A program made the position numbers and the translations under genes. A DNA stretch of 8,843 bases from Actinomycetota bacterium (GTDB taxonomy: Bacteria > Actinomycetota > Thermoleophilia > Solirubrobacterales > Solirubrobacteraceae). The stretch lies in assembly GCA_019348575.1 (NCBI GenBank), contig JAHWJE010000038.1, forward strand, positions 1-8,843, written 5' to 3'. The notes below the pieces were generated by a model, which did not search any database, had not been told where the DNA came from, and worked only from the letters and a program-made list of their open reading frames with translations. This document shows positions 1-8,843 of the stretch, in pieces. Within the stretch, counting starts at the first letter, position 1. Every line of letters begins with the position of its first letter.

Positions 1-519
1 ATCAAGATCAACGCGGTCGGCATGCGCGGCTTCACGGAGACCGAGATCCTGCCGATGGCGGAGTTCGCGCGCTCGCATCCCTACGAGGTTCGCTTCATCG
101 AGTTCATGCCGCTGGACGCCGATCACGCCTGGGACCCGAGCCTCGTGCTGACCGGCGAGGAGATTCGCGCGGCGATCCACGAGGTCTATCCGCTCGAGGC
201 CCAGCCGCGCGAGCCGAGCGCCACCGCGCGCGTCTACCGCTTCGCCGACGGCACGGGGAAGATCGGCTTCATCAATCCGGTCTCGGAGCCGTTCTGCGGC
301 GACTGCGATCGCATCCGGGTGACCGCTGAGGGCAAGTTGCGCACCTGCCTGTTCAGCCTTCACGAGACCGACCTGCGGGCGCCGATGCGCGACGGCGCGT
401 CGGACGACGAGCTGCGCGAGACGATCCGCGACGCCGTCTGGCGCAAGGAGCTCAAGCATCACGTCAACGAGCCCGGCTACCGCCAGCCCGAGCGCTCGAT
501 GTCGCAGATCGGCGGTTGA
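1..519 (+). CDS. moaA: GTP 3',8-cyclase MoaA, C-terminal part (5' end outside window)
   Basis: This is the C-terminal 172 residues of MoaA, a cytoplasmic radical-SAM enzyme that rearranges GTP to 3',8-cyclo-7,8-dihydro-GTP. MoaC then converts that product to cPMP in molybdenum cofactor synthesis. The reading frame is open from base 1 and begins IKINAVG, a conserved MoaA stretch; the ATG at 22 is internal. Next come RFIEFMPL (the end of the radical-SAM barrel) and the C-terminal [4Fe-4S] binding region FCGDCDRIRVTAEGKLRTC. Its three cysteines are encoded at 295, 304 and 346 and match the CxxC-x13-C pattern that holds the GTP-binding cluster. The protein ends in the Gly-Gly tail typical of functional MoaA. 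Full MoaA is about 330 residues, so roughly half is missing, including the N-terminal CxxxCxxC SAM cluster. No other moa gene is visible; the next gene is convergent. Confidence 0.96.
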   Translation: MKINAVGMRGFTETEILPMAEFARSHPYEVRFIEFMPLDADHAWDPSLVLTGEEIRAAIHEVYPLEAQPREPSATARVYRFADGTGKIGFINPVSEPFCGDCDRIRVTAEGKLRTCLFSLHETDLRAPMRDGASDDELRETIRDAVWRKELKHHVNEPGYRQPERSMSQIGG

Positions 520-646: not shown

Positions 647-1252
647 TCAACGTATCTCGAACGAGCCGGCGATCGCGTCGAACGTCGGCTGCAGCGCAGG
701 CAGCTTTGACGCCGGAACCGCCTGCAGCACGATCTGGATGAGCCGGTCGCCCTTGAAGAGGAAGTAGTGGACGTGTGCGCCCAACCCGCCGCCCTCCCTC
801 CGATACGTGTACGTGTACCGGTAGCCGGGAAGCCCGTCGATCATCACCGCGACCGGCTCGGGAACCGCCGTGATGCGGTCGTCCGCGCGCAGCAGGTCGT
901 CGGTCAGCGGGCGGACGATCGGCAGCGTCTCGGACGTCACCGTCTCGAGGTTCGACGGGCGGACGCTGACGCTCACGGCCGCGGACGCGTCCGGTGACGC
1001 CGCGACGATACGGACGCGCTGGTCGCCCGGCAGGCGCCGCTTCCACGTACCGGGATACGCGATCGACACATCGGTCAGCGTGTCTGTGAAGCGTTTGGTC
1101 TCGGGCGGGGCCGGCTCTTGCGCCGCGGGGGGAGGCGTCTCAGCCGGCGTCGGGACGATGCTGCGCCCGACGACGCCACCGACCACAAGCGCGAGCACGG
1201 CGAAGAGGGCGAGCACGCCCACGACGCCTGCGACGAGCCACTTGCGCTCCAT
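647..1252 (-). CDS. Membrane-anchored protein with PsbP/DcrB-like extracytoplasmic domain
   Basis: A 201-residue protein of unknown specific role. Residues 1-4 (MERK) give a positive start, 7-29 form one hydrophobic helix, and 32-52 are a Pro/Ala/Glu-rich linker. Residues 53-201 form one compact domain that should lie outside the membrane by the positive-inside rule. The domain opens with FTDTLTDVSIAYPGTWKR and closes with PTFDAIAGSFEIR. This start and finish are typical of the Mog1p/PsbP-like fold seen in bacterial DcrB, LpqN and related small lipoproteins. There is no lipobox cysteine, so the helix itself would be the anchor. The ATG at 1252 has no clear Shine-Dalgarno sequence and begins only 14 bases after the U-run of the terminator that closes the upstream operon. 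Its own promoter would have to overlap that terminator or lie inside the preceding gene, or the gene depends on read-through. The fold call is by pattern only. Confidence 0.8.
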   Translation of the reverse strand: MERKWLVAGVVGVLALFAVLALVVGGVVGRSIVPTPAETPPPAAQEPAPPETKRFTDTLTDVSIAYPGTWKRRLPGDQRVRIVAASPDASAAVSVSVRPSNLETVTSETLPIVRPLTDDLLRADDRITAVPEPVAVMIDGLPGYRYTYTYRREGGGLGAHVHYFLFKGDRLIQIVLQAVPASKLPALQPTFDAIAGSFEIR

Positions 1253-1305: not shown

Positions 1306-1932
1306 TCAGCGCTCCCTCGGCTCCTCGATCCTGCGGCCCTCCGCGTCGCGCGTACGCGTGCCGGGCGTCTGCGCGCTCTCGTACGGAGAGTGCACGGGAT
1401 CCTTGCCGATGACCGGCGACTTCGGGATCCTCCGGCTCGGGTCGCGACGATCCGGCGGCGCCGGGTAGAGCTTCGCGACCTCGGTCGTGGAGTACTGCGG
1501 ATCGCGGACAGCCGCGCCCTTCTCGTGCGCGACGCCGATCGGCGCCCCGCGGCCCAGGCCGGCGAGGATGCCGACACCGCGCGTGTACACGGTGCCGACG
1601 TTGACGACCTTGCCCGTCCGGCCGACGCGGCGCAGGAACTTCGCGCCCTCGCCCGGGAACAGCGACTCGACGAGACCCGCTGAGTCCGGACCGGCCTTCT
1701 TCAGCATCAGGTTCTCGAGCGCGTCGCGCGTGACGACGAGGTTCGCGTTGATGTCGTCGACGATCGGGTTGACCGGCGCCGTCTTCTCGACGATCTCCCC
1801 GACCAGGGGAAGCACCACGCTCAATCCGTTGTAGATCTTGAACAGCTGCATGATCGTCGCGATCAGGTAGATCGCCGCCGCCGCGATGATCAACGCGGCC
1901 AGCAACAGGATGAGTGCTACTTGAATCTCCAT
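1306..1932 (-). CDS. Operon gene H: single-pass membrane protein with long basic tail
   Basis: I do not recognise this 208-residue protein. Residues 5-29 form a very hydrophobic helix. After it comes a helical segment, 30-75, with the motif TAPVNPIVDDINANL (51-65), which resembles the proline motifs in operon products A, B, C and F. Residues 91-135 are rich in Gly, Arg and Val. Residues 145-208 are rich in Pro, Arg, Asp and Glu and look disordered. The acidic N-terminus and basic remainder predict an outside N-terminus and a cytoplasmic tail. It is the last gene of the operon, with its stop followed at once by an intrinsic terminator. Its ATG is 9 bases from the stop of gene G. The junction is an inverted repeat (CTAGGGGGCCCCTAT on the minus strand) that includes the G-run likely to act as ribosome binding site. 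Confidence 0.85.
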   Translation of the reverse strand: MEIQVALILLLAALIIAAAAIYLIATIMQLFKIYNGLSVVLPLVGEIVEKTAPVNPIVDDINANLVVTRDALENLMLKKAGPDSAGLVESLFPGEGAKFLRRVGRTGKVVNVGTVYTRGVGILAGLGRGAPIGVAHEKGAAVRDPQYSTTEVAKLYPAPPDRRDPSRRIPKSPVIGKDPVHSPYESAQTPGTRTRDAEGRRIEEPRER

Positions 1933-1941
1933 AGGGGCCCC

Positions 1942-2208
1942 CTAGTAGTCCGGCAGCGCGGCATCGAGTGAGCTGCCGTAGTCGAGCACGGACTCCCGGA
2001 TCGACTTGATGTAGCCCTGCGTCGTGAGCAGGACGGCCACCGCATCGAGGTCCCTGGACGCCGCCGCCGCAATGCCGGCGATCGCGTCGATCTTCGGCGG
2101 GATGCTCGAAGCTGCCGCGAACACGCGCTTCAGGCAGGAGACGAGGAGCACGGCCGACGCGATCAGGACGATGACCGTGATCCAGAGTGCTAGATCAGCA
2201 ATATCCAT
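1942..2208 (-). CDS. Operon gene G: small single-pass membrane protein
   Basis: An 88-residue protein of no recognised family. Residues 1-5 are acidic (MDIAD) and 7-26 form the membrane helix, which includes Cys25 at its end. Lys27-Arg28 follow at once, predicting outside-N, cytoplasmic-C topology. The rest is an Ala-rich amphipathic helix with a Pro37-Pro38 break, ending in TTQGYIKSIRESVLDYG (62-78). That ending loosely resembles the C-terminal part of gene E (QDGYMNALTDGY), suggesting the two are relatives. The ATG at 2208 is 5 bases after the stop of gene F. A G-run (GGGGGG) about 9 bases upstream, inside the end of F, can serve as ribosome binding site. Confidence 0.85.
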   Translation of the reverse strand: MDIADLALWITVIVLIASAVLLVSCLKRVFAAASSIPPKIDAIAGIAAAASRDLDAVAVLLTTQGYIKSIRESVLDYGSSLDAALPDY

Positions 2209-2213
2209 ATCGC

Positions 2214-2492
2214 TCAGCCCCCCTGCGCCTTGCGCACGACGAGGCGGGCCTTGCCCGCGATCACCGGCAGCGTGTCGACGATGATCTTCAGCGGACCGTT
2301 GACGTCCGCCACGAGCTTGTCCAGCGGACGCAGGTGCTGTGACTCCACGTTCGCAAGGATGCTGCCGAGCTTGCCGAGGCCATCGGAGATGACCTCCAGT
2401 CGCTTCCCCACCATCGTGAGAGCGGTGGCGAGGATCACGACCAGCAGCACCGCCGCCAGCATGCTCAGAAGGATCATGACCTCAGTGCTCAT
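2214..2492 (-). CDS. Operon gene F: small single-pass membrane protein with PLD motif
   Basis: A 92-residue protein with no known family. I chose the ATG at 2492 although the frame stays open further upstream. It overlaps the stop of gene E as ATGA and is preceded by AGGAG with 7-base spacing, and upstream extension would only read through gene E in another frame. Residues 6-27 are the membrane helix, with one acidic residue before and Lys30-Arg31 after, predicting a cytoplasmic C-terminus. Residues 30-85 look helical, with hydrophobic residues spaced three and four apart. The motif RPLDKLVADVNGPL (55-68) aligns with APVNPIVDDINANL of gene H: five identical positions of fourteen, and most others conservative. 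No cysteine or catalytic signature is present. Confidence 0.85.
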   Translation of the reverse strand: MSTEVMILLSMLAAVLLVVILATALTMVGKRLEVISDGLGKLGSILANVESQHLRPLDKLVADVNGPLKIIVDTLPVIAGKARLVVRKAQGG

Positions 2493-2797
2493 ACCGTCTC
2501 TCCTGCCGCCGTGTAACCGTCGGTGAGCGCGTTCATGTAGCCGTCCTGGATGATCGCCTCTTCGATGATCAGGTTGAGGACGGGTGGCGTGGCGGCGAGC
2601 TTCGGGATGTTCTGCGTCTGCGAGGAGACGACGCCCGCCGTCTCCAGCAGGCTCGCGACGCTCGCCTGGATGTCCTTCACGAGACTCAACAGGAGCATCA
2701 TGAGGATGATCACGACCGCGAGCACGACGTAGCTCATCCCGATGACGACCTGCCAGATCGCGTGCGTGTCGTGTGATGATGCGATTACGTCCATCAT
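2489..2797 (-). CDS. Operon gene E: small single-pass membrane protein
   Basis: A 102-residue protein of unknown function. A polar N-terminal stretch with Asp3, His9, Asp10 and His12 precedes a long hydrophobic helix at about 16-40, followed by Lys41. Positive-inside logic therefore puts the N-terminus outside and the tail in the cytoplasm. The tail is an amphipathic helix interrupted at Pro65 and by TPPVLNLIIEE (70-80), a weak form of the proline motif found in the other operon products. It then has QDGYMNALTDGY (84-95), which echoes gene G. The start is ATGATG at 2797, overlapping the TGA of gene D; either of the two ATGs could be used. The stop overlaps the start of gene F by four bases. 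Both joints imply translational coupling. Confidence 0.85.
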   Translation of the reverse strand: MMDVIASSHDTHAIWQVVIGMSYVVLAVVIILMMLLLSLVKDIQASVASLLETAGVVSSQTQNIPKLAATPPVLNLIIEEAIIQDGYMNALTDGYTAAGETV

Positions 2798-3051
2798 TTA
2801 CCCACCGCCACCTTCCGCAGGGCCCGGGCCATGTGAAGGATCCGGACCGCCGAGTCGTTGACCCTGTCGACACCGTCAGCGAGGCTCGACGATTGAGCCC
2901 TGACGGTGTCGACGCCCGCATCGGCCTCCGCCGCCTGGTCTGCGATCCGCGCCGCCAGCGTGAGGATGACGGACACGATGATCACGACGACCACGATGAC
3001 GAAGAACGCCAGGCCCATGCCGATGTACCAATCGGTGTACGTAGCAGCCAT
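2794..3051 (-). CDS. Operon gene D: small single-pass membrane protein with short heptad helix
   Basis: An 85-residue protein without a recognised family. I chose the ATG at 3051: it overlaps the TAA of gene C by one base (TAATG) and gives MAATYTDWYIG followed directly by a membrane helix at 11-33. Longer in-frame starts (to 3129) would add residues only by overlapping gene C and lack similar logic. After Arg35 the protein is a charged helix with hydrophobic residues exactly seven apart at Val50, Leu57, Val64, Ile71 and Leu78, so it may form a short coiled coil. The Arg/Lys content after the helix predicts that this part is cytoplasmic. The gene marks the change in the operon from three large products to five small ones. 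Confidence 0.85.
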   Translation of the reverse strand: MAATYTDWYIGMGLAFFVIVVVVIIVSVILTLAARIADQAAEADAGVDTVRAQSSSLADGVDRVNDSAVRILHMARALRKVAVGK

Positions 3052-3857
3052 TACCTGACACACCCCGTTCCACCGATTCGGTTGCCGGTCAGCGCCTTCT
3101 CGAGAAGCTGCAGCGGGAGGTTGAGACACCCGAGGAGGTCGAACGGCGGCGAGCAGTCGATGCTGTTCGCGTGGCCGTTGATGTGTGAAGCGAACGGGCC
3201 ATTGCGGCCCTGCTGGCCCACGTTGGCGTCGATGCCGACGAAGTCCGTCTTGATCGGCGCCGCGGTGTTGTCGATGTCAGTGGCCAGGCCGACGATGGTC
3301 GCAACGGCGCGGTCGATGCTGTTGACCCGGCTGAGGATCGAACCACCGCTCACCAGGATGCTCCGGGCGCTGCGGTTGATCTCCCGGGCGGACCGATCGA
3401 TCGTCCCGACGTTGCCTCCGATCCCGAGCACGCTCGTGTTGATCGAGCTCGCGCTGCCGAAGATCTGATCCACGGTGGTGCCGATCTGCAGCACCGTCGA
3501 GTTGATCTCACCGGCGACCGAGTTGATCTGCCCCACCTTGCCGAGGATCCGCTTCAGCTTCGGGTCGATGCCCTTGCTCGCGAGCTCGAGCGTCGTCGCG
3601 AGATGCCCCGACAGCGGCTCAGCCGCCCGGAGGATCTTCGTCGACGTGTCCCGGATCGTCCTCGCCTGGTCGATGAAGGGGGCCTCCGTGCCGATCTCCT
3701 CCACGTTTGGCTTGATGACCGCCACCGAGCGATCGATCGATCGCGCGGCCAGCAGCGTCCCGGTGAGGAACATCACCGAGAGCAGCGCCCACGCGATCAG
3801 GATCGTGAGCACGACGGGCGCCATGCCCCGTGCTCCACTGAGAATGTCTCTCAACAT
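3051..3857 (-). CDS. Operon gene C: membrane-anchored Ile-heptad rod protein
   Basis: A 268-residue protein of unknown family. Residues 13-37 form the membrane helix. RAAEPLSGH (77-85) carries the shared proline motif. From Ile111 to Ile209 every seventh residue is isoleucine, fifteen times without a break (111, 118, 125 and so on to 209). Most repeats have Ala or Val four residues after the Ile, and several begin with Ile-Asn or Ile-Asp. This 4-3 spacing fits a coiled coil with Ile at d and small residues at a. The C-terminal 55 residues leave the repeat and contain Cys235, Cys244 and Cys266. N-terminal charges (Arg3, Arg10) are balanced by Arg39 and Arg43, so orientation is uncertain by charge alone; likeness to A and B favours an outside C-terminus. 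The ATG at 3857 lies 7 bases after the stop of B with no good Shine-Dalgarno sequence. A second ATG at 3824 has GGAG 8 bases upstream and could be the true start. Confidence 0.87.
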   Translation of the reverse strand: MLRDILSGARGMAPVVLTILIAWALLSVMFLTGTLLAARSIDRSVAVIKPNVEEIGTEAPFIDQARTIRDTSTKILRAAEPLSGHLATTLELASKGIDPKLKRILGKVGQINSVAGEINSTVLQIGTTVDQIFGSASSINTSVLGIGGNVGTIDRSAREINRSARSILVSGGSILSRVNSIDRAVATIVGLATDIDNTAAPIKTDFVGIDANVGQQGRNGPFASHINGHANSIDCSPPFDLLGCLNLPLQLLEKALTGNRIGGTGCVR

Positions 3858-3864
3858 GGCTGAC

Positions 3865-4602
3865 TCAGCACTTGCCCGCGTTGCCGCTGAGTGCCGCCAG
3901 CGCCTGGATCGCGGTCGACCTGCAGATGCTCGTCAGGTGGTTGTGAGCATCCGTCAGACCGTCGTTGATGGGGGTCGTGTCCGCGAGGATCCCGCCCAGC
4001 GAGCCGTTGATGCTCGCGACGAGCGGAATGACCGCTGCGGTGCCCTGGCTCTCGGCCGACCGAACCTGCCTGAGCTGCCTGTTGATCGTCTTGACGCGGC
4101 TGTCGATCGTGACCAGCGTGCCCGAGATGCTGCGCAGGCCGCCGGTGATCGTCCCGAGCATGCCCGTCGTGCCCGTCAGCGAACCTGACGTGTCGACCAG
4201 CGACCCGGAGACCGTCGTCAGCGTGCCCGACGTGTCGACCAGCGAGCCCGAGGTGTTCAGCAGCGAGCTCGACGTCGTGCCCAGAGCGGCGTTGATACGG
4301 CCGGTCGAGCGGTTGATCGAGGTCAGCGCGTTGAGGATCGCGACGCCCTGGCCGGGAACCGGCTCCAGCGCCTGGTCGATGTTGGTCAGGTTCTTGTTGA
4401 TCGTCTGGATGTAGCCGGTCAGCGGCTCGGCCTCGCCGCCGACCTCGGTCAGCGTCTGGTCGGTCGTGCCGAGCGCCTTGTCGATGGAGTTCAGCGCGCT
4501 CGTGATACCGGAGAGAAATCCGATCACCACGACCACGACCAGGATCAGGATCGTTCCGAAGATCCAGGTCCAGCGGAGATCTGTCGCTACGCCACGCTGC
4601 AC
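3865..4602 (-). CDS. Operon gene B: membrane-anchored Thr/Ser/Gly heptad-repeat protein
   Basis: A 245-residue protein of unknown family. I place the start at the GTG at 4602: AGGAGG lies five bases upstream, whereas the upstream ATG at 4668 would run 23 bases into gene A and has no such site. Residues 12-33 are the membrane helix after Arg3 and Arg10, so the C-terminus should lie outside. Short heptads at 33-54 and 68-82 flank the motif GEAEPLTGY (56-64). A long heptad array covers 96-180, about 12 repeats, with Ile, Thr or Val at the first position and mostly Leu at the fifth. The middle is unusual: TSGSLVD, TSGTLTT, VSGSLVD, TSGSLTG, nearly uncharged and with Gly in each repeat. The end holds Cys227 and Cys245, the last residue. 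L-x-x-G-type heptads recall the spacer of YhgE/Pip proteins, but nothing else of that family is present. Confidence 0.87.
   Translation of the reverse strand: MQRGVATDLRWTWIFGTILILVVVVVIGFLSGITSALNSIDKALGTTDQTLTEVGGEAEPLTGYIQTINKNLTNIDQALEPVPGQGVAILNALTSINRSTGRINAALGTTSSSLLNTSGSLVDTSGTLTTVSGSLVDTSGSLTGTTGMLGTITGGLRSISGTLVTIDSRVKTINRQLRQVRSAESQGTAAVIPLVASINGSLGGILADTTPINDGLTDAHNHLTSICRSTAIQALAALSGNAGKC
4187..4245 (-). repeat. Internal 21-base-period repeat in gene B
   Basis: The 17-base string GACGTGTCGACCAGCGA (plus strand) occurs identically at 4187-4203 and 4229-4245, 42 bases or two heptads apart. It encodes part of the TSGSLVD heptads. The nucleotide identity suggests recent in-frame duplication of heptad units, or gene conversion, rather than only protein-level selection. 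Confidence 0.8.
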
Positions 4603-4607
4603 GGGGT

Positions 4608-4613
4608 CCTCCT
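4608..4613 (-). promoter_or_regulatory. Shine-Dalgarno site fixing the start of gene B
   Basis: CCTCCT on the plus strand reads AGGAGG on the minus strand, five bases before the GTG at 4602. It is the best ribosome binding site in the operon and argues for the GTG start over the ATG at 4668. Confidence 0.85.
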
Positions 4614-4645
4614 CAGTGCCTTCTCGTTGCTCTTCGTCGCGCGGC

Positions 4646-5461
4646 TCACGGTCGGCCCTCGCAATCACCCTTGGGCGCCTTGGGGTTGCCCAGGTTGGCG
4701 TTGATGTCGATGCAGGCCGCGGTGTCCTCGATCTGGATCGCGTCGCCGAGGATGTCGCCCGAGTCGGACTTGATCCCCCTGGCGATGCTCAGCGTCCGCG
4801 TCAGGCCCTGGACGATCGTCTCGGCGTCGTTGTCGATGATCCGTGCGATGCCGAGGATGCCCGAACCGCCGCCGGCGGTCTGGTTGATGCTCCGCGCCGT
4901 GCGGTTGATCGTGCCCGCGACGTTGTTGATCCCGGTGGCGAGGCCGCCGATCTGCCCGGCGGTCGTGTTGATCGTGCCGGCGGTGCCACCGATGTCCGTC
5001 GCGGTGCCGCCGACGGTCGTGGCGGTCGTGTTGATCGTCCCCGCGGTCGACAGGATCGTGCTCGCGAGGCTGTCGATCGAGCTCGCATCACGGTTGATCG
5101 AGCGCGCGCGGGCGACGATCTTCGTGAGAAGCGGGTCAAGCGGCGCTGCCGTCTCGAGAATCGAGTCCGCGATCTGATTCGTCCGCTGGAGCTGGCGAAT
5201 CGAGTCCGTCGCCGCGTTGATCCCGACGCCGGTGTCGCGGATGCTCTTGGCCTTCTTGTCGATCGCGCGAGCGGTGTTGACGGTCTCCGCGAGGAGACCC
5301 GCTGCGATCGTGACCGACGCCGCGACCAGGACCAGGATGATGACGTTGACGCCCTGGACGCCGCCGGAGCCGCCGCTGGACCTCGTCGCACCAGCGCTGC
5401 TGGCGCTTGCCGCCGCAGGCCGCTGCTGCGGGGACTTGGGCTTCCTCTTTAGCGCTGGCAC
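4646..5461 (-). CDS. Operon gene A: membrane-anchored INTTA-heptad protein, first gene
   Basis: A 271-residue protein of unknown family. I chose the GTG at 5461, with GGTGGAG upstream (GGAG, 6-base gap). The frame continues upstream to 5710 but that part has no domain and reads as non-coding. The N-terminus is basic (VPALKRKPK), then a Ser/Ala/Gly-rich cytoplasmic stretch to about residue 37 and a membrane helix at 38-58, so the remainder should lie outside. Heptads with Ile at 67, 74, 81 and 88 precede the motif TAAPLDPLL (104-112). A second array from Ile115 to Ile192 has 12 repeats with Ile (once Val150) at each seventh residue. It is rich in Gly, Thr and Ala, and INTTA occurs twice. The tail contains Cys250 and Cys267. 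It is the first gene after a long leader region and is separated from gene B by 43 bases. Confidence 0.87.
   Translation of the reverse strand: MPALKRKPKSPQQRPAAASASSAGATRSSGGSGGVQGVNVIILVLVAASVTIAAGLLAETVNTARAIDKKAKSIRDTGVGINAATDSIRQLQRTNQIADSILETAAPLDPLLTKIVARARSINRDASSIDSLASTILSTAGTINTTATTVGGTATDIGGTAGTINTTAGQIGGLATGINNVAGTINRTARSINQTAGGGSGILGIARIIDNDAETIVQGLTRTLSIARGIKSDSGDILGDAIQIEDTAACIDINANLGNPKAPKGDCEGRP
4958..5038 (-). repeat. Internal 21-base-period repeat in gene A
   Basis: The 18-base string GGCGGTCGTGTTGATCGT (plus strand) occurs identically at 4958-4975 and 5021-5038, 63 bases or exactly three heptads apart. It encodes the repeated segment around INTTA. Between the copies, diverged units keep the 21-base period. 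Confidence 0.8.
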
Positions 5462-5815: not shown

Positions 5816-6015
5816 TAGCGTGCCGGAGATGTCTGTCGAGACGATCCGGCGCGCCGCGTGCTGCCCGAGAACTCCCTGCGCGGGGGCGGTCCTGCGTCGC
5901 TGCGAGACGCGCCCGGGGCTTGGCATGACGCGCGCGCGGGGCTGATCCAGGGCAGCCGTTGCGCGGTTCGACCAGGCACAGATCGAGCGCAGCGAGGGGC
6001 GGCGACGGGCGCTCC

Positions 6016-6933
6016 GTGCGCGTCCTGCTCGTCGTCGTGTTCGTGCCCGTCCTGATCCTCGTCGGCGTGCTCGCCGGCGCGGTGCTCGGCAGCGGCGGCG
6101 GCGATGCCCCGTCGCGTGGTTCCGGCCCGCTGCCGGCGATCGTGTCCGAGGCGGCGCCGCGGCCCCGTGAGGCGGCGGCGGCCGTCCCGCCGCCCGTCGC
6201 GACGGCGGCGAGCGTCGAGCGCGTCGACGTCGGCAGCGGCGCGCAGGGCGCCGCGATCTTCCGGCTCCGCGGCCGCGCGGCGCGGCCGGGTCCGGTCGTG
6301 ATCTTCCTGCACGGCTGGGTGGCGGTCGAGCCGGCGCGCTACGGCCCCTGGATCGGGCACCTCGTCTGGCAAGGCGCGACGGTGGTCTACCCGGCCTACC
6401 AGACCAGGCCGTCCTACGACACGGTCACGCCGCTGGCCAACGTCCTGCGCGGCGTGCGCGCCGCGCTCGAGCAGGTGCAGCTGGCGCCCGGGCGGCTCGT
6501 CGTCGCCGGTCACTCGGCCGGCGGCGCGTTGGCGGCGGACTACGCCGCGGTCGCTGCGGCGCACGGGCTGCCCGCGCCCGCGGCGGTCTTCAGCGTGTAT
6601 CCCGGCCGCAAGCTGCGCCATCTCGCGGTGCCGATCCCGGCGGTCAGCCTCAGATCGATCGACGCGCGCACGCGCGTGCTCGCGTACGCGGGCGAGCGCG
6701 ACACCGCGGTCGGCCGCGGGACGGCGGCGCGGATCGTGTCCGGCGCGCCGCAGGCCGACGCCACGCTGCAGATCATCAGCGACGACGCCGTCGACGATCA
6801 CAGCGCGCCGCGGCGCTTCGACCGCGAAGCGCAACGGACCTTCTGGGATCCGCTCGACGCGCTCGTCGCCTCGACGGGACCATTCGCGGCGCCCGGCTCG
6901 GGGGCCCCGCACCCCGCAGCGGTCACGCCGTAA
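6016..6933 (+). CDS. Secreted or membrane-anchored alpha/beta hydrolase (esterase/lipase-like)
   Basis: A 305-residue serine hydrolase, specific substrate unknown. Residues 1-25 are a signal peptide or anchor (VRVLLVVVFVPVLILVG and on). Residues 27-68 are a Pro/Ala/Ser-rich linker and the hydrolase fold follows. FLHGW (97-101) is the oxyanion-hole HG motif. GHSAGG (165-170) is the nucleophile elbow with Ser167, Asp229 (GERDT) is the likely acid and His262 (DDHSAP) the likely base, so the catalytic triad appears complete and in normal order. The enzyme should act outside the cytoplasmic membrane on an ester or similar bond. The start is uncertain: TTG at 5959 would add 19 residues with AGA/AGG codons atypical of this gene, so I prefer GTG at 6016, though neither has a strong ribosome binding site. 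It is divergent from the operon and 89 bases before the acyl-CoA dehydrogenase gene. Confidence 0.88.
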   Translation: MRVLLVVVFVPVLILVGVLAGAVLGSGGGDAPSRGSGPLPAIVSEAAPRPREAAAAVPPPVATAASVERVDVGSGAQGAAIFRLRGRAARPGPVVIFLHGWVAVEPARYGPWIGHLVWQGATVVYPAYQTRPSYDTVTPLANVLRGVRAALEQVQLAPGRLVVAGHSAGGALAADYAAVAAAHGLPAPAAVFSVYPGRKLRHLAVPIPAVSLRSIDARTRVLAYAGERDTAVGRGTAARIVSGAPQADATLQIISDDAVDDHSAPRRFDREAQRTFWDPLDALVASTGPFAAPGSGAPHPAAVTP

Positions 6934-7022: not shown

Positions 7023-8237
7023 GTGGACCTCAACGACACTCCCGAGCAGGCGCGGTACCGCGCCAGGGTGCGCGCCTGGCTTCACGAGCACCGGCACGAG
7101 GCGCCCGCCGAGCAGGACGAGGAGGACCCCGCGTACATCGCCGCGCGCCGCGCGTGGCAGGGCAAGCTCGCCGCCGCCGGGCTGGCGGGCGTCACGTGGC
7201 CCGTCGAGCTCGGCGGCCAGGGCCTCGGTCCGATCGAGCACGTCATCGTCGGCCAGGAGATCATCCGCGCGCGCGTGCCCGGCATCCTCGACGTGATCGG
7301 CGTCGGGATGCTCGGCCCGACGATCATCGCCCACGGCAGCGACGAGCAGAAGAGCCGCTTCCTGGGGCCGATGCTGCACGGCGACGAGGTCTGGTGCCAG
7401 CTCTTCTCGGAGCCGGCGGCGGGGTCGGACCTCGCGGCGGTGCAGGCGCGAGCGATCCTGCAGGACGACGGAAGCTGGCGGCTGTCGGGCCAGAAGGTGT
7501 GGACGACGAACGCGCACTTCGCAGCGCACGGGCTGCTGCTCGCGCGAACCGACGCCGACGTGCCCAAGCACAAGGGCCTGACGATGTTCGTCGTCCCGAT
7601 GGACGCCGCGGGCATCACGGTCCGCGGGCTGCGCCAGATCTCCGGCGAGGCCGAGTTCAACGAGGTCTTCTTCGACGACGTGCGACTCGACGCCGACGCC
7701 GTCGTCGGCGGCGTCGGAAACGGCTGGGCGACGGCGCTGACGACGCTGATGTTCGAGCGGCTGACGATCGGCCTGGGCTCGGAGAGCCTCGGCTACAAGG
7801 CCGAGCGCTACGCCGCCGCGATCGCGACCGACGAGCACGCGCGGCGCGACCCCGAGGTGCGCCGCCGGCTCGGCGAGCTGTGCGTCGAGCTGCTGGCCGT
7901 GAAGTTCACCGGCTACCGGATGCTGAGCGCGCTGCAGCAGGGCCAGATCCCCGGTCCGGAGGCCGGCCTGGCGAAGGTCACGACGGTGCGCGCGGCGATC
8001 GAGGCGGGCGACCTGATCGCCGACGTGCTGGGGCCCGACGCGCTCGCGCAGGACAGCGAGTGGGCGTACATGATCTCGTTTCTGCCGGGCCTGAAGTCCG
8101 CGGGCGGGACGGAGGAGATCCTGCGCAACACGATCGGCGAGCGCGTGCTCGGCCTGCCGCCCGAGCCGCGCCTGGACAAGGGGATCCCGTTCAGCGAGCT
8201 GCGCGCCAGGGAGCGCGCGGGCGCGGGCGCGAGATGA
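7023..8237 (+). CDS. Acyl-CoA dehydrogenase, FadE-type, catalytic-subunit-like
   Basis: A 404-residue FAD enzyme that would introduce the alpha-beta double bond into an acyl-CoA thioester in beta-oxidation. The fold is complete. An N-terminal helical domain (4-120) contains WPVELGGQGLGPIE; the middle beta domain has LFSEPAAGSD (127-136) and KVWTTNA (158-164), both flavin/substrate signatures; FNEVFFDDVRL (212-222) follows; and the C-terminal helical domain holds KSAGGTEEILRNTIGER (358-374). Glu245 in MFERLTIG aligns by eye with the catalytic glutamate of the isovaleryl-CoA dehydrogenase (DLERLVL) and ChsE4 type. The usual C-terminal glutamate of medium-chain enzymes (YEGT) is replaced by AGGT. 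The next gene overlaps by four bases and encodes a second, dissimilar dehydrogenase. This is the arrangement of mycobacterial FadE26-FadE27 and FadE28-FadE29, heteromers acting on steroid side chains. The substrate here is unknown. Confidence 0.94.
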   Translation: MDLNDTPEQARYRARVRAWLHEHRHEAPAEQDEEDPAYIAARRAWQGKLAAAGLAGVTWPVELGGQGLGPIEHVIVGQEIIRARVPGILDVIGVGMLGPTIIAHGSDEQKSRFLGPMLHGDEVWCQLFSEPAAGSDLAAVQARAILQDDGSWRLSGQKVWTTNAHFAAHGLLLARTDADVPKHKGLTMFVVPMDAAGITVRGLRQISGEAEFNEVFFDDVRLDADAVVGGVGNGWATALTTLMFERLTIGLGSESLGYKAERYAAAIATDEHARRDPEVRRRLGELCVELLAVKFTGYRMLSALQQGQIPGPEAGLAKVTTVRAAIEAGDLIADVLGPDALAQDSEWAYMISFLPGLKSAGGTEEILRNTIGERVLGLPPEPRLDKGIPFSELRARERAGAGAR

Positions 8238-8843
8238 ACCTCGAGCTGACCGACGAGCAGAGCTTCCTGCGCGAGGCCGCGCGCGAGGCGCTGTCGCGCG
8301 TGAAGACCGTCGCGGCGGCGCGCGCGGCGCTCGAGGACCCGGCCGCGCGGCCCGACCTGTGGCCGACGGCGCGCGAGGCCGGCTGGGCCGGGCTGCTGGT
8401 GAGCGAGGACAGCGGGGGCGCCGGGCTCAGCGCGTTCGAGGCGATGCTCGTCATGACCGAGGCAGGCCGCGTGCTCGCCGGGATCGAGCTGCTCGGCCAC
8501 CTGCCGGCGTCGTCGCTGCTGGACGTGGCGGCTGATTCGCGCGTGGGTTCGGTCGCCGAGGGCGCGCTGCGCGCGTGCTTCGTGCCCGCGCGGCCACCGG
8601 GCGACCTCGACGAGCGCTGGACGGTCGAGCCGCGCTCGGGCTCGGTGCGGGTCGACGCGCCGGTGCTGTCGGACGACGGCAGGTTGAGCGGCAGCGTGGC
8701 GTGGGTGCCGGATGCGCCGGGGGCCGACGTCTACGTCGTCGCGGCGACGTCCGCCCGGGACGGAGCGCCCGTGGCGGTCGCCGTCGATGTGGCGGAGGCG
8801 AGGGTGGTTGCGGCCACGCGCTACGACGCGACGCGCTCGCTCG
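8234..8843 (+). CDS. Second acyl-CoA dehydrogenase subunit (3' end outside window)
   Basis: The frame is open from ATG 8234 to the end of the window, 203 complete codons. It starts MNLELTDEQSFLREAAREAL, the usual first helix of acyl-CoA dehydrogenases, and continues with GWAGLLVSEDSGGAGLSAFE (50-69) and a Met/Glu helix, as in the N-terminal domain. From about residue 115 the sequence is more divergent, with CFVPARPPGD in place of a clear flavin signature, as in the degenerate partner subunit of heteromeric FadE pairs. The ATG overlaps the TGA of the preceding gene (ATGA), so the two are translationally coupled and probably assemble together. The C-terminal half, including any catalytic glutamate, lies outside the window. 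Confidence 0.93.
   Translation, partial: MNLELTDEQSFLREAAREALSRVKTVAAARAALEDPAARPDLWPTAREAGWAGLLVSEDSGGAGLSAFEAMLVMTEAGRVLAGIELLGHLPASSLLDVAADSRVGSVAEGALRACFVPARPPGDLDERWTVEPRSGSVRVDAPVLSDDGRLSGSVAWVPDAPGADVYVVAATSARDGAPVAVAVDVAEARVVAATRYDATRSL

What the first reader, a model, noticed from the sequence alone, without database searches (positions are those of the whole stretch)
1306..5461. Eight-gene operon of single-helix membrane proteins with coiled-coil-like tails
Seen: eight consecutive minus-strand genes, gaps of 43 bases or less or overlaps, one terminator. Every product has one N-terminal membrane helix followed by helical sequence, and none has a recognised enzymatic or transport motif. 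Inference: they form one membrane assembly, perhaps an envelope scaffold or fence-like structure. I know of no named system with this composition.
Basis: partly seen in the sequence, partly recalled or inferred. Interest (0 to 1): 0.8.

Follow-up and report, generated by a model that had tools for sequence, protein, structure and literature searches.

The report
Membrane module of gas-oxidising enzymes
These eight genes look like a membrane docking kit that connects bacterial enzymes burning traces of hydrogen or carbon monoxide to the cell membrane, with the same five small proteins shared by two unrelated enzyme types; this is inferred from genome comparison and has not been tested in the laboratory.

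Summary
The eight genes are real: one TM each, one tight operon, strong terminator. They form two blocks: A1-A3 (g1-g3), long amphipathic tails with two invariant C-terminal cysteines; B1-B5 (g4-g8), C-terminus predicted inside. A PsbP-fold protein (647-1252) accompanies them.

Collinear B1-B5 orthologues lie directly upstream of coxM-coxS-coxL (form I CO dehydrogenase) and beside a clade of cytoplasmic [NiFe]-hydrogenases; the group 1h clade lacks them. In sampled Actinomycetota, CoxG lacks a C-terminal TM at 19 of 19 B-bearing cox loci where it is visible, and has one at 7 of 7 B-less loci. A Deinococcus locus breaks the rule.

Best explanation: B1-B5 are the membrane anchor, probably the quinone port, of CO and H2 oxidases; A1-A3 and the PsbP-like protein are an optional extension. 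The port role is inferred.

Prior art: "HylTM1-5" of group 1l hydrogenase clusters (PMC9561532, passages) match B1-B5 in number and, in one relative, in arrangement and profile. Ten searches showed no paper on the CODH link, the CoxG swap or the composite. An envelope fence is not supported.

The parts
4646..5461 (-). A1 (g1): N-terminal TM, long heptad-like tail (IN.TAG repeats), C-terminal Cys pair
   Evidence: 15 aligned sequences, invariant C250 and C267
3865..4602 (-). A2 (g2): N-terminal TM, S/T/G/L heptad tail, C-terminal Cys pair (C249, C267 numbering, 14 sequences); start GTG at 4602 inferred from orthologues
3051..3857 (-). A3 (g3): strongly conserved TM region, amphipathic tail, C-terminal GHANSIDCS motif and second Cys (C235, C266 invariant in 15 sequences)
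2794..3051 (-). B1 (g4): short single-TM protein, predicted C-terminus inside, motif NDS..RIL..ARALRKVAVGK
2489..2797 (-). B2 (g5): short single-TM protein, motif NIP.L.AT.PVL...EE...QDGYMNALTDG
2214..2492 (-). B3 (g6): short single-TM protein, motif VES(E/Q)HLR.L...V..IN
1942..2208 (-). B4 (g7): short single-TM protein, motif SKDLDAV.LLLTTQ...YGGSLD. A B4 profile made from eight sets other than the window's matched 4178 database proteins
1306..1932 (-). B5 (g8): single-TM protein (208 aa) with conserved segment VYTRG...LGR.AP and SPVIG; model is a 50-residue helix followed by a second helix
1268..1298 (-). terminator hairpin of the eight-gene operon
   Evidence: -29 kcal/mol, z -5.0
647..1252 (-). 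C: one TM plus PsbP-fold domain; in the same stretch as block A in 11 of 14 genomes of the order
   Evidence: (best PDB match 2xb3, E 4.4e-9)
1..519 (+). MoaA C-terminal part (PF06463; molybdopterin synthesis). Suggests the CO-dehydrogenase type of locus; cox genes themselves would lie off the left edge (inference from L002, L004)

Best explanation
B1-B5 (g4-g8) are dedicated membrane subunits of cytoplasmic gas-oxidising dehydrogenases: form I Mo-CODH (CoxMSL) and a clade of [NiFe]-hydrogenases. Each spans the membrane once with the N-terminus outside and sends a mostly amphipathic helix into the cytoplasm. Together they would make a hetero-oligomeric stalk that docks the soluble enzyme and lets menaquinone reach it, doing with five different subunits what HucM does with four copies of one, and replacing the C-terminal membrane anchor of CoxG. 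A1-A3 and the PsbP-fold protein C form an optional extension found beside both enzyme types. Shown here: gene-for-gene orthology and order, association with both enzymes, absence from the group 1h loci judged, CoxG without TM at the B-bearing cox loci where it is visible, no export signal or clear TM on the hydrogenase small subunits. Inferred: topology (positive-inside rule), oligomer, docking, quinone transfer. In the window the partner is most likely the CODH, whose cox genes would lie off its left edge.
For: Association: B sets directly upstream of coxM in 13 cox loci of the order (L099 shows four genes, cut by the contig end) and in 8 more found through B5 itself (L187-L194; L191 lacks B1 at a contig start). 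Of 20 phylum-level B5 hits fetched, 12 hold a Cox or Hyd subunit gene, 7 only hydrogenase accessory genes, 1 neither. Orthology: HHalign diagonal scores sys x cox 135-338 against at most 36 off-diagonal; sys x hyd 49-120 against at most 39. CoxG: with B, no C-terminal TM in 19 of 19 visible; without B, C-terminal TM in 7 of 7 uncut. CoxL of B-bearing loci carries the form I motif AYxCSFR. Hydrogenase tree: of the group 1h clade (19 rows) 0 have B, 14 none, 5 cut; 16 of 25 rows of the other clade have B. HydS proteins have no Tat motif and no clear TM. Topology: N-out in 137 of 139 B proteins, 2 ties, none N-in (one four-gene set occurs twice in G212 and is counted twice). Most B tails are amphipathic above shuffles. 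Published need: electron transfer from group 1h enzymes is described as unresolved (PMC6883350, PMC7174314; passages).
Against: No experiment, no quinone site, no complex model. B2 tails of the system and cox sets and B5 tails of the system are not clearly amphipathic above shuffles (z -0.1, 1.3, 1.1). No sequence match to HucM (B4 and B5 profiles). The CoxG pattern follows few lineages, since B-bearing CoxL fall in one clade of the order plus one distant clade, so the counts are not independent; five more loci where B could not be judged also have CoxG without TM (L103, L141, L142, L144, L146). Exceptions: Deinococcus sp. AJ005 has a 149-aa CoxG without TM and no B in 18 kb; L099 shows a second, 215-aa CoxG with TM 6 kb away; 9 of 65 B clusters show no oxidase gene in the fetched stretch, several on short contigs, but L195 and L204 in 20 kb. 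Four HydL rows of the B-bearing clade were labelled without B (one has B5 just beyond the stretch). Block A lies without a B set in 20 kb in L038 and L043. The topology of A1 and A3 is unclear.
Confidence: 0.6

Rival explanations
1. B1-B5 are an assembly or maturation scaffold at the membrane that helps load metal centres into CODH or hydrogenase, and are not part of the mature enzyme.
For: They sit next to hyp genes, CooC-like ATPases, MoxR-like and VWA genes in many loci; C has a PsbP fold, and plant PsbP assists a large redox complex (recalled; fold).
Against: Mo-Cu CODH and [NiFe] enzymes have unrelated active sites (recalled); MoxR-like and VWA genes also accompany cox operons without B (L105, L106); it does not explain why CoxG lacks its TM where B is present.
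Confidence: 0.2
2. B1-B5 only tether the enzyme to the membrane; quinone is still carried by CoxG or electrons by a NifU-Rieske protein, with no conduit in the B bundle.
For: TM-less CoxG is still encoded beside B-bearing CODH; a NifU-Rieske protein lies in the B-type hydrogenase locus tested (L036) and its relatives in others.
Against: A plain tether needs one helix, not five conserved, different ones; tails are mostly amphipathic.
Confidence: 0.15
3. Envelope scaffold or fence unrelated to gas oxidation.
For: Single-helix proteins with long coiled-coil-like tails; conserved Cys pairs in A1-A3 could be extracytoplasmic disulfides.
Against: Location beside CODH and hydrogenase genes across a phylum sample; separate sets beside each enzyme in one genome (G002, G004).
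Confidence: 0.03
4. MCE-like lipid-transport tunnel: outward helical needle for lipids.
For: Sub-threshold match of g2 to the MCE family model (E 0.012); one source calls an A1 relative MlaD-like.
Against: No MCE domain in g1-g8; no MCE or YrbE-type gene was labelled among the neighbours, but most neighbours were not scanned against Pfam.
Confidence: 0.02

Closest known systems
HylTM1-5 of group 1l [NiFe]-hydrogenase clusters (PMC9561532, passages seen; it cites Ortiz 2021, not held)
   Same: Five short predicted TM proteins beside a high-affinity hydrogenase; in locus L185 five B-type genes lie between HydS and HydL as described, and their sequences match the hydrogenase-type B1-B5 profiles best in the same order (whose printed heading wrongly says cox; B3 nearly ties with B5).
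   Different: In the window the set stands with A1-A3 and C beside MoaA; relatives serve Mo-CODH; no hydrogenase is in the window. The passages seen give no function.
HucM of Huc hydrogenase, M. smegmatis (PMC10017518, passages)
   Same: Amphipathic helices between a cytoplasmic gas oxidase and the membrane; proposed functional analogue.
   Different: HucM is one protein forming a tetrameric tube, peripherally associated; B1-B5 are five different TM proteins; B4 and B5 profiles found no HucM.
CoxG of Mo-CODH (Kropp 2025, not held; known here through passages of PMC13240472 and PMC13077300)
   Same: Proposed link from CODH to menaquinone at the membrane.
   Different: CoxG is a COXG-domain protein (PF06240, 4 of 4 tested), with a C-terminal TM in the B-less operons where visible; B1-B5 have no COXG domain and accompany TM-less CoxG.
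PsbP/CyanoP fold (for gene 647-1252)
   Same: Predicted structure matches 2xb3, E 4.4e-9.
   Different: Sub-threshold Pfam PsbP match (E 0.3); has its own N-terminal TM; found with gas oxidases.

Membership tests
HylTM1-5-type module | Five short single-TM proteins in a row | tested here: met
   g4-g8 (85-208 aa; g8 is longer than the rest)
HylTM1-5-type module | Homology to the five proteins of a 1l-arranged locus, in order | tested here: met
   L185 genes against hyd1-5 profiles: diagonal 43-63 (95-97% probability), best in every row, though B3 nearly ties with B5 (47 vs 45); sys x hyd diagonal also best. Published HylTM sequences not compared
HylTM1-5-type module | Lies between hydrogenase small and large subunit genes | tested here: not met
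   No hydrogenase gene in the window; met in relative L185. So the window set is filed as a variant, not as HylTM of a 1l hydrogenase
HucM | Sequence homology to HucM | tested here: not met
   B4 and B5 profiles against PDB sequences, no HucM match at E<=1; A2 profile matched mostly coiled coils. B1-B3, A1, A3 not searched
HucM | Tube of amphipathic helices joining enzyme to membrane, carrying quinone | tested here: inconclusive
   Tails mostly amphipathic; tube and quinone not testable here
CoxG | COXG domain PF06240 | tested here: not met
   None in g1-g8
MCE transporters | MCE domain | tested here: not met
   Pfam none; NCBIfam TIGR00996 sub-threshold on g2 only
Methyl-accepting chemotaxis proteins (database label) | MCP signalling domain over cut-off | tested here: not met
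   PF00015 14.1 bits against cut-off 34.6 on g3
PsbP family (gene 647-1252) | PsbP fold and Pfam PF01789 over cut-off | tested here: inconclusive
   Fold met; Pfam 11.5 bits against 23.5

The most novel reading that the evidence does not exclude
One hetero-pentameric membrane quinone port is a plug-in part shared by two unrelated metalloenzyme families, Mo-CODH and [NiFe]-hydrogenase, across Actinomycetota; A1-A3 plus the PsbP-like protein extend it into a larger envelope-spanning complex.
Probability: 0.4. Interest if true: 0.9.

Novelty: new variant of a known kind. Interest (0 to 1): 0.74.

Why it matters
How cytoplasmic group 1h-type hydrogenases pass electrons to the quinone pool is described as open (PMC6883350 and PMC7174314, passages). 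Finding the same five membrane proteins, in the same order, beside CODH and beside a clade of relatives of those hydrogenases, with CoxG lacking its anchor where they occur, gives a concrete candidate for these other enzymes and makes the question testable with gene deletions and co-purification. Soil uptake of atmospheric H2 and CO depends on such enzymes.

Tried and rejected
Rejected: chemotaxis protein (the database label of many relatives; MCP domain far below cut-off); MCE transporter (no MCE domain); phage origin (no relative in viral contigs); sequence homology of B4 and B5 to HucM. First attempt to delimit the families by iterative HMMs drifted between paralogues; replaced by position-based alignments and profile-profile comparison. 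The A1 and A3 topology test was inconclusive because gene starts were called crudely. AlphaFold of B5 had low confidence beyond its first helices (pLDDT 63.6, pTM 0.26), so no fold search was made with it. Gene starts in fetched loci come from a simple codon-usage caller, not a standard gene finder. Neighbour labels come from similarity to seed genes; the seeds HypC, HypD, HypE, HypF, HycI, MoaA, CoxM, CoxS, XdhC, MoxR-like, VWA, CooC-like and the globin were checked against Pfam and agree.

Rows set aside: 15 of 51 CoxL rows could not be judged (contig ends) and 6 are downstream tandem copies; one CoxL fragment under 600 aa was dropped; HydL fragments of 480 aa or less were left out. Of 25 new genomes with B5 hits in the phylum search, 20 were fetched. 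Loci fetched through HydL or CoxL searches are biased towards the association; the 40 fetched through B5 hits are not, and one of them (L206) proved to be a false match.
Full report
OBSERVATION. The eight minus-strand ORFs at 1306-5461 are present as described. Gaps are 5-43 bases or short overlaps when g2 starts at 4602. Each product has one strong hydrophobic segment near its N-terminus. A strong terminator hairpin follows g8. None reaches a Pfam or NCBIfam cut-off.

CONSERVATION. g3 has 529 database relatives at E<=0.001 among 3164 candidates; in the 23 sequences aligned, the TM region is nearly invariant. Relatives in named genomes were four Solirubrobacteraceae MAGs; none was found in viral contigs. 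In the order, 14 of 232 genomes carry g3. In these, g1-g2-g3 keep their order as block A (in G210 and G115 split over contigs), and C lies in the same stretch in 11 of 14. Block B follows A directly in some (window, L002-L004, L035, L047) and is a separate or divergent unit nearby in others; in L037 and L039 the nearby set has four genes, and in L038 and L043 no B set lies in the 20 kb stretch. A-B-C sets also occur outside the order, in L170 and L176 (A matches E 8e-58 or better).

NEIGHBOURS. In G001-G004 the system lies a few kilobases from coxM-coxS-coxL, with MoaA and MoaC between (L047, L002, L003, L004); in G073 (L100) only B5 and C are visible at a contig start before the same genes. 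CoxL of L047 is over the NCBIfam cut-off (1200 bits against 991). Of the other ten genomes with g3, eight have hydrogenase or Hyp genes on the same contig within about 20 kb (G071, G176, G187, G208, G209, G210, G212, G213), G186 has HydL about 31 kb away, and G115's contigs are too short to tell. All 14 genomes encode a [NiFe]-hydrogenase large subunit over the Pfam cut-off, against 87 of 232 in the order; 7 of 14 encode CoxL over its cut-off, against 41 of 232. The window has MoaA at 1-519 (PF06463) next to C, the arrangement of L002 and L004, so its cox genes should lie just off the left edge (inference).

BLOCK B ALONE. B sets without block A lie beside hydrogenase genes (L071, L072, L075-L077, L079, L086) and directly upstream of coxM-coxS-coxL in 13 cox loci of the order (L068, L088-L094, L096, L098, L099, L101, L136). 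Eight further strong B5 hits, on contigs where one search had given no intact coxL, proved to be B sets upstream of coxM (L187-L194). G002 and G004 hold two sets, one in the full system near CODH and one beside hydrogenase. A scan for runs of three or more single-TM genes found none in L105-L107, L108-L127, L128-L135 or L137-L146.

ORTHOLOGY. Alignments by position show shared motifs for each of the five. Profile comparison gives sys x cox diagonal scores 135-338 (off-diagonal at most 36), sys x hyd 49-120 (at most 39), cox x hyd 87-113 (at most 51). So gene order and identity are kept in all three settings.

DISTRIBUTION. B5 matches 46 of 232 genomes of the order and 29 of 396 of a phylum sample. 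Of 20 phylum loci fetched, 12 hold Cox or Hyd subunit genes, 7 hydrogenase accessory genes only, 1 neither. Over all fetched loci one search prints 68 clusters of three or more B-type genes, 59 with such a gene in the stretch, 54 within 5 kb; two places were fetched twice (L036/L087, L041/L085) and one printed cluster (L036:8790-11543) is block A, which leaves 65, 56 and 53. One four-gene set is present on two contigs of G212. The nine without are L044, L046, L069, L070, L174, L195, L199, L200, L204.

COXG. Where CoxG is visible near a B-bearing or full-system CODH it has no C-terminal TM in 19 of 19 (9 B loci and L100; L080, L081; L191, L167, L178, L182, L183, L184, L186). L099 has in addition a 215-aa CoxG with TM 6 kb away. 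In B-less cox loci with the upstream side visible, CoxG is visible and uncut in 7 of 12 and has a C-terminal TM in all 7; in L105 it is cut by the contig end; in 4 none is in view. Five loci that could not be judged for B have CoxG without TM (L103, L141, L142, L144, L146). Short and long forms match PF06240 in 4 of 4 tested. Outside Actinomycetota, Afipia carboxidovorans OM5 fits (205 aa with a TM-like segment, no B), Deinococcus sp. AJ005 does not (149 aa, no TM, no B), and the Thermomicrobium roseum locus shows neither CoxG nor B. The Nonomuraea locus gave no B match. The CoxL tree puts judged B-bearing rows in one clade of the order (100/100, which also holds L167) and one distant clade (100/100), so the pattern rests on few independent changes.

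HYDROGENASES. The HydL of a B-bearing locus (L037) has 5aa5, the C. necator group 1h enzyme, as its nearest solved relative at 453 bits; the HydL of a B-less clade member (L080) scores 929 bits against it. So the B-less clade is group 1h proper and the B-bearing clade is a more distant relative. In the tree of 46 HydL the group 1h clade (19 rows) has 0 B, 14 none, 5 cut; the other clade (25 rows) has 16 B, 5 cut, 4 none; two long-branch rows stand apart. The small subunits have no Tat motif and no clear TM. Loci of the second clade contain CooC-like ATPases and a NifU-Rieske protein. By the description in PMC9561532 they resemble group 1m (CooC, adjacent subunits, small TM proteins), and L185 resembles group 1l (five TM proteins between the subunits); this assignment was not tested with a classifier.

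TOPOLOGY AND HELICES. Of 139 B proteins, 137 have more K/R after the TM than before it, 2 tie, none the reverse: N-out, C-in. A2 is mostly N-in (10 of 14); A1 and A3 are not settled. Tails of most B families and all three A families are amphipathic above shuffles; sys2, cox2 and sys5 are not clearly so. The B5 model is a 50-residue helix followed by a second helix, low confidence beyond. C is a confident model (pLDDT 87.3) with a PsbP fold.

INTERPRETATION. CODH and [NiFe]-hydrogenase share neither fold nor active site (recalled); what they share is the need to hand electrons from a cytoplasmic enzyme to membrane menaquinone. A module that goes with both, is predicted to face the cytoplasm, and goes with loss of CoxG's anchor is most simply a membrane anchor and quinone port. 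HucM is the functional model (PMC10017518, passages: tetrameric amphipathic coiled-coil tube carrying menaquinone 94 A). No sequence relation to HucM was found for the two B profiles tested. Block A and C remain functionally open; the Cys pairs of block A suggest an extracytoplasmic, disulfide-bearing part, but only A2's topology supports that.

PRIOR ART. PMC9561532 (passages) mentions HylTM1-5 in group 1l clusters and two 82-92-aa TM proteins in group 1m clusters. Full-text searches for HylTM and for group 1l with transmembrane proteins found only that paper. Ten searches in all showed no paper linking these proteins to CODH; subscription papers are mostly not held, and only listings and passages were read, so this is not proof of absence.

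Noticed in passing
L047:9422-9859, L036:4842-5279, L042:7705-8139, L043:12798-13295 and others: A DUF4383 protein (PF14325, for L047) recurs beside the full system in several loci; it may be another component.
   Followed up: partly
L047:9958-10332, L003:13923-14297, L100: A bacterial-like globin (PF01152, for L047) lies between the system and MoaA in several CODH-type loci.
   Followed up: partly
L068:16371-18659, L088, L089, L090, L091, L093: A second form I CoxL (AYACSFR or AYSCSFR) downstream in B-bearing cox operons, without its own CoxM/CoxS directly upstream; these rows group together with unjudged rows in the CoxL tree.
   Followed up: partly
L068:15259-15702: A YceI-like gene (PF04264) directly before the TM-less CoxG; YceI proteins bind polyisoprenoids (recalled), which would fit quinone handling.
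   Followed up: no
L195:8827-10245 (G176:C58), L204:8385-10039 (G208:C4): Complete B1-B5 sets with no hydrogenase or CODH gene in the 20 kb stretch (a CooC-like gene in L204).
   Followed up: no
L205:1903-4132: Two consecutive four-gene B-type sets beside one hydrogenase.
   Followed up: no
L036:12030-16682, L046:14763-17508: Several CooC/MinD-like ATPase genes near the hydrogenase-type loci.
   Followed up: no
window 5959-6933 and 7023-8842: Alpha/beta hydrolase and two acyl-CoA dehydrogenase-like genes (first one PF02770/PF02771) on the plus strand, divergent from the operon; a similar set stands in the same place in L047.
   Followed up: partly
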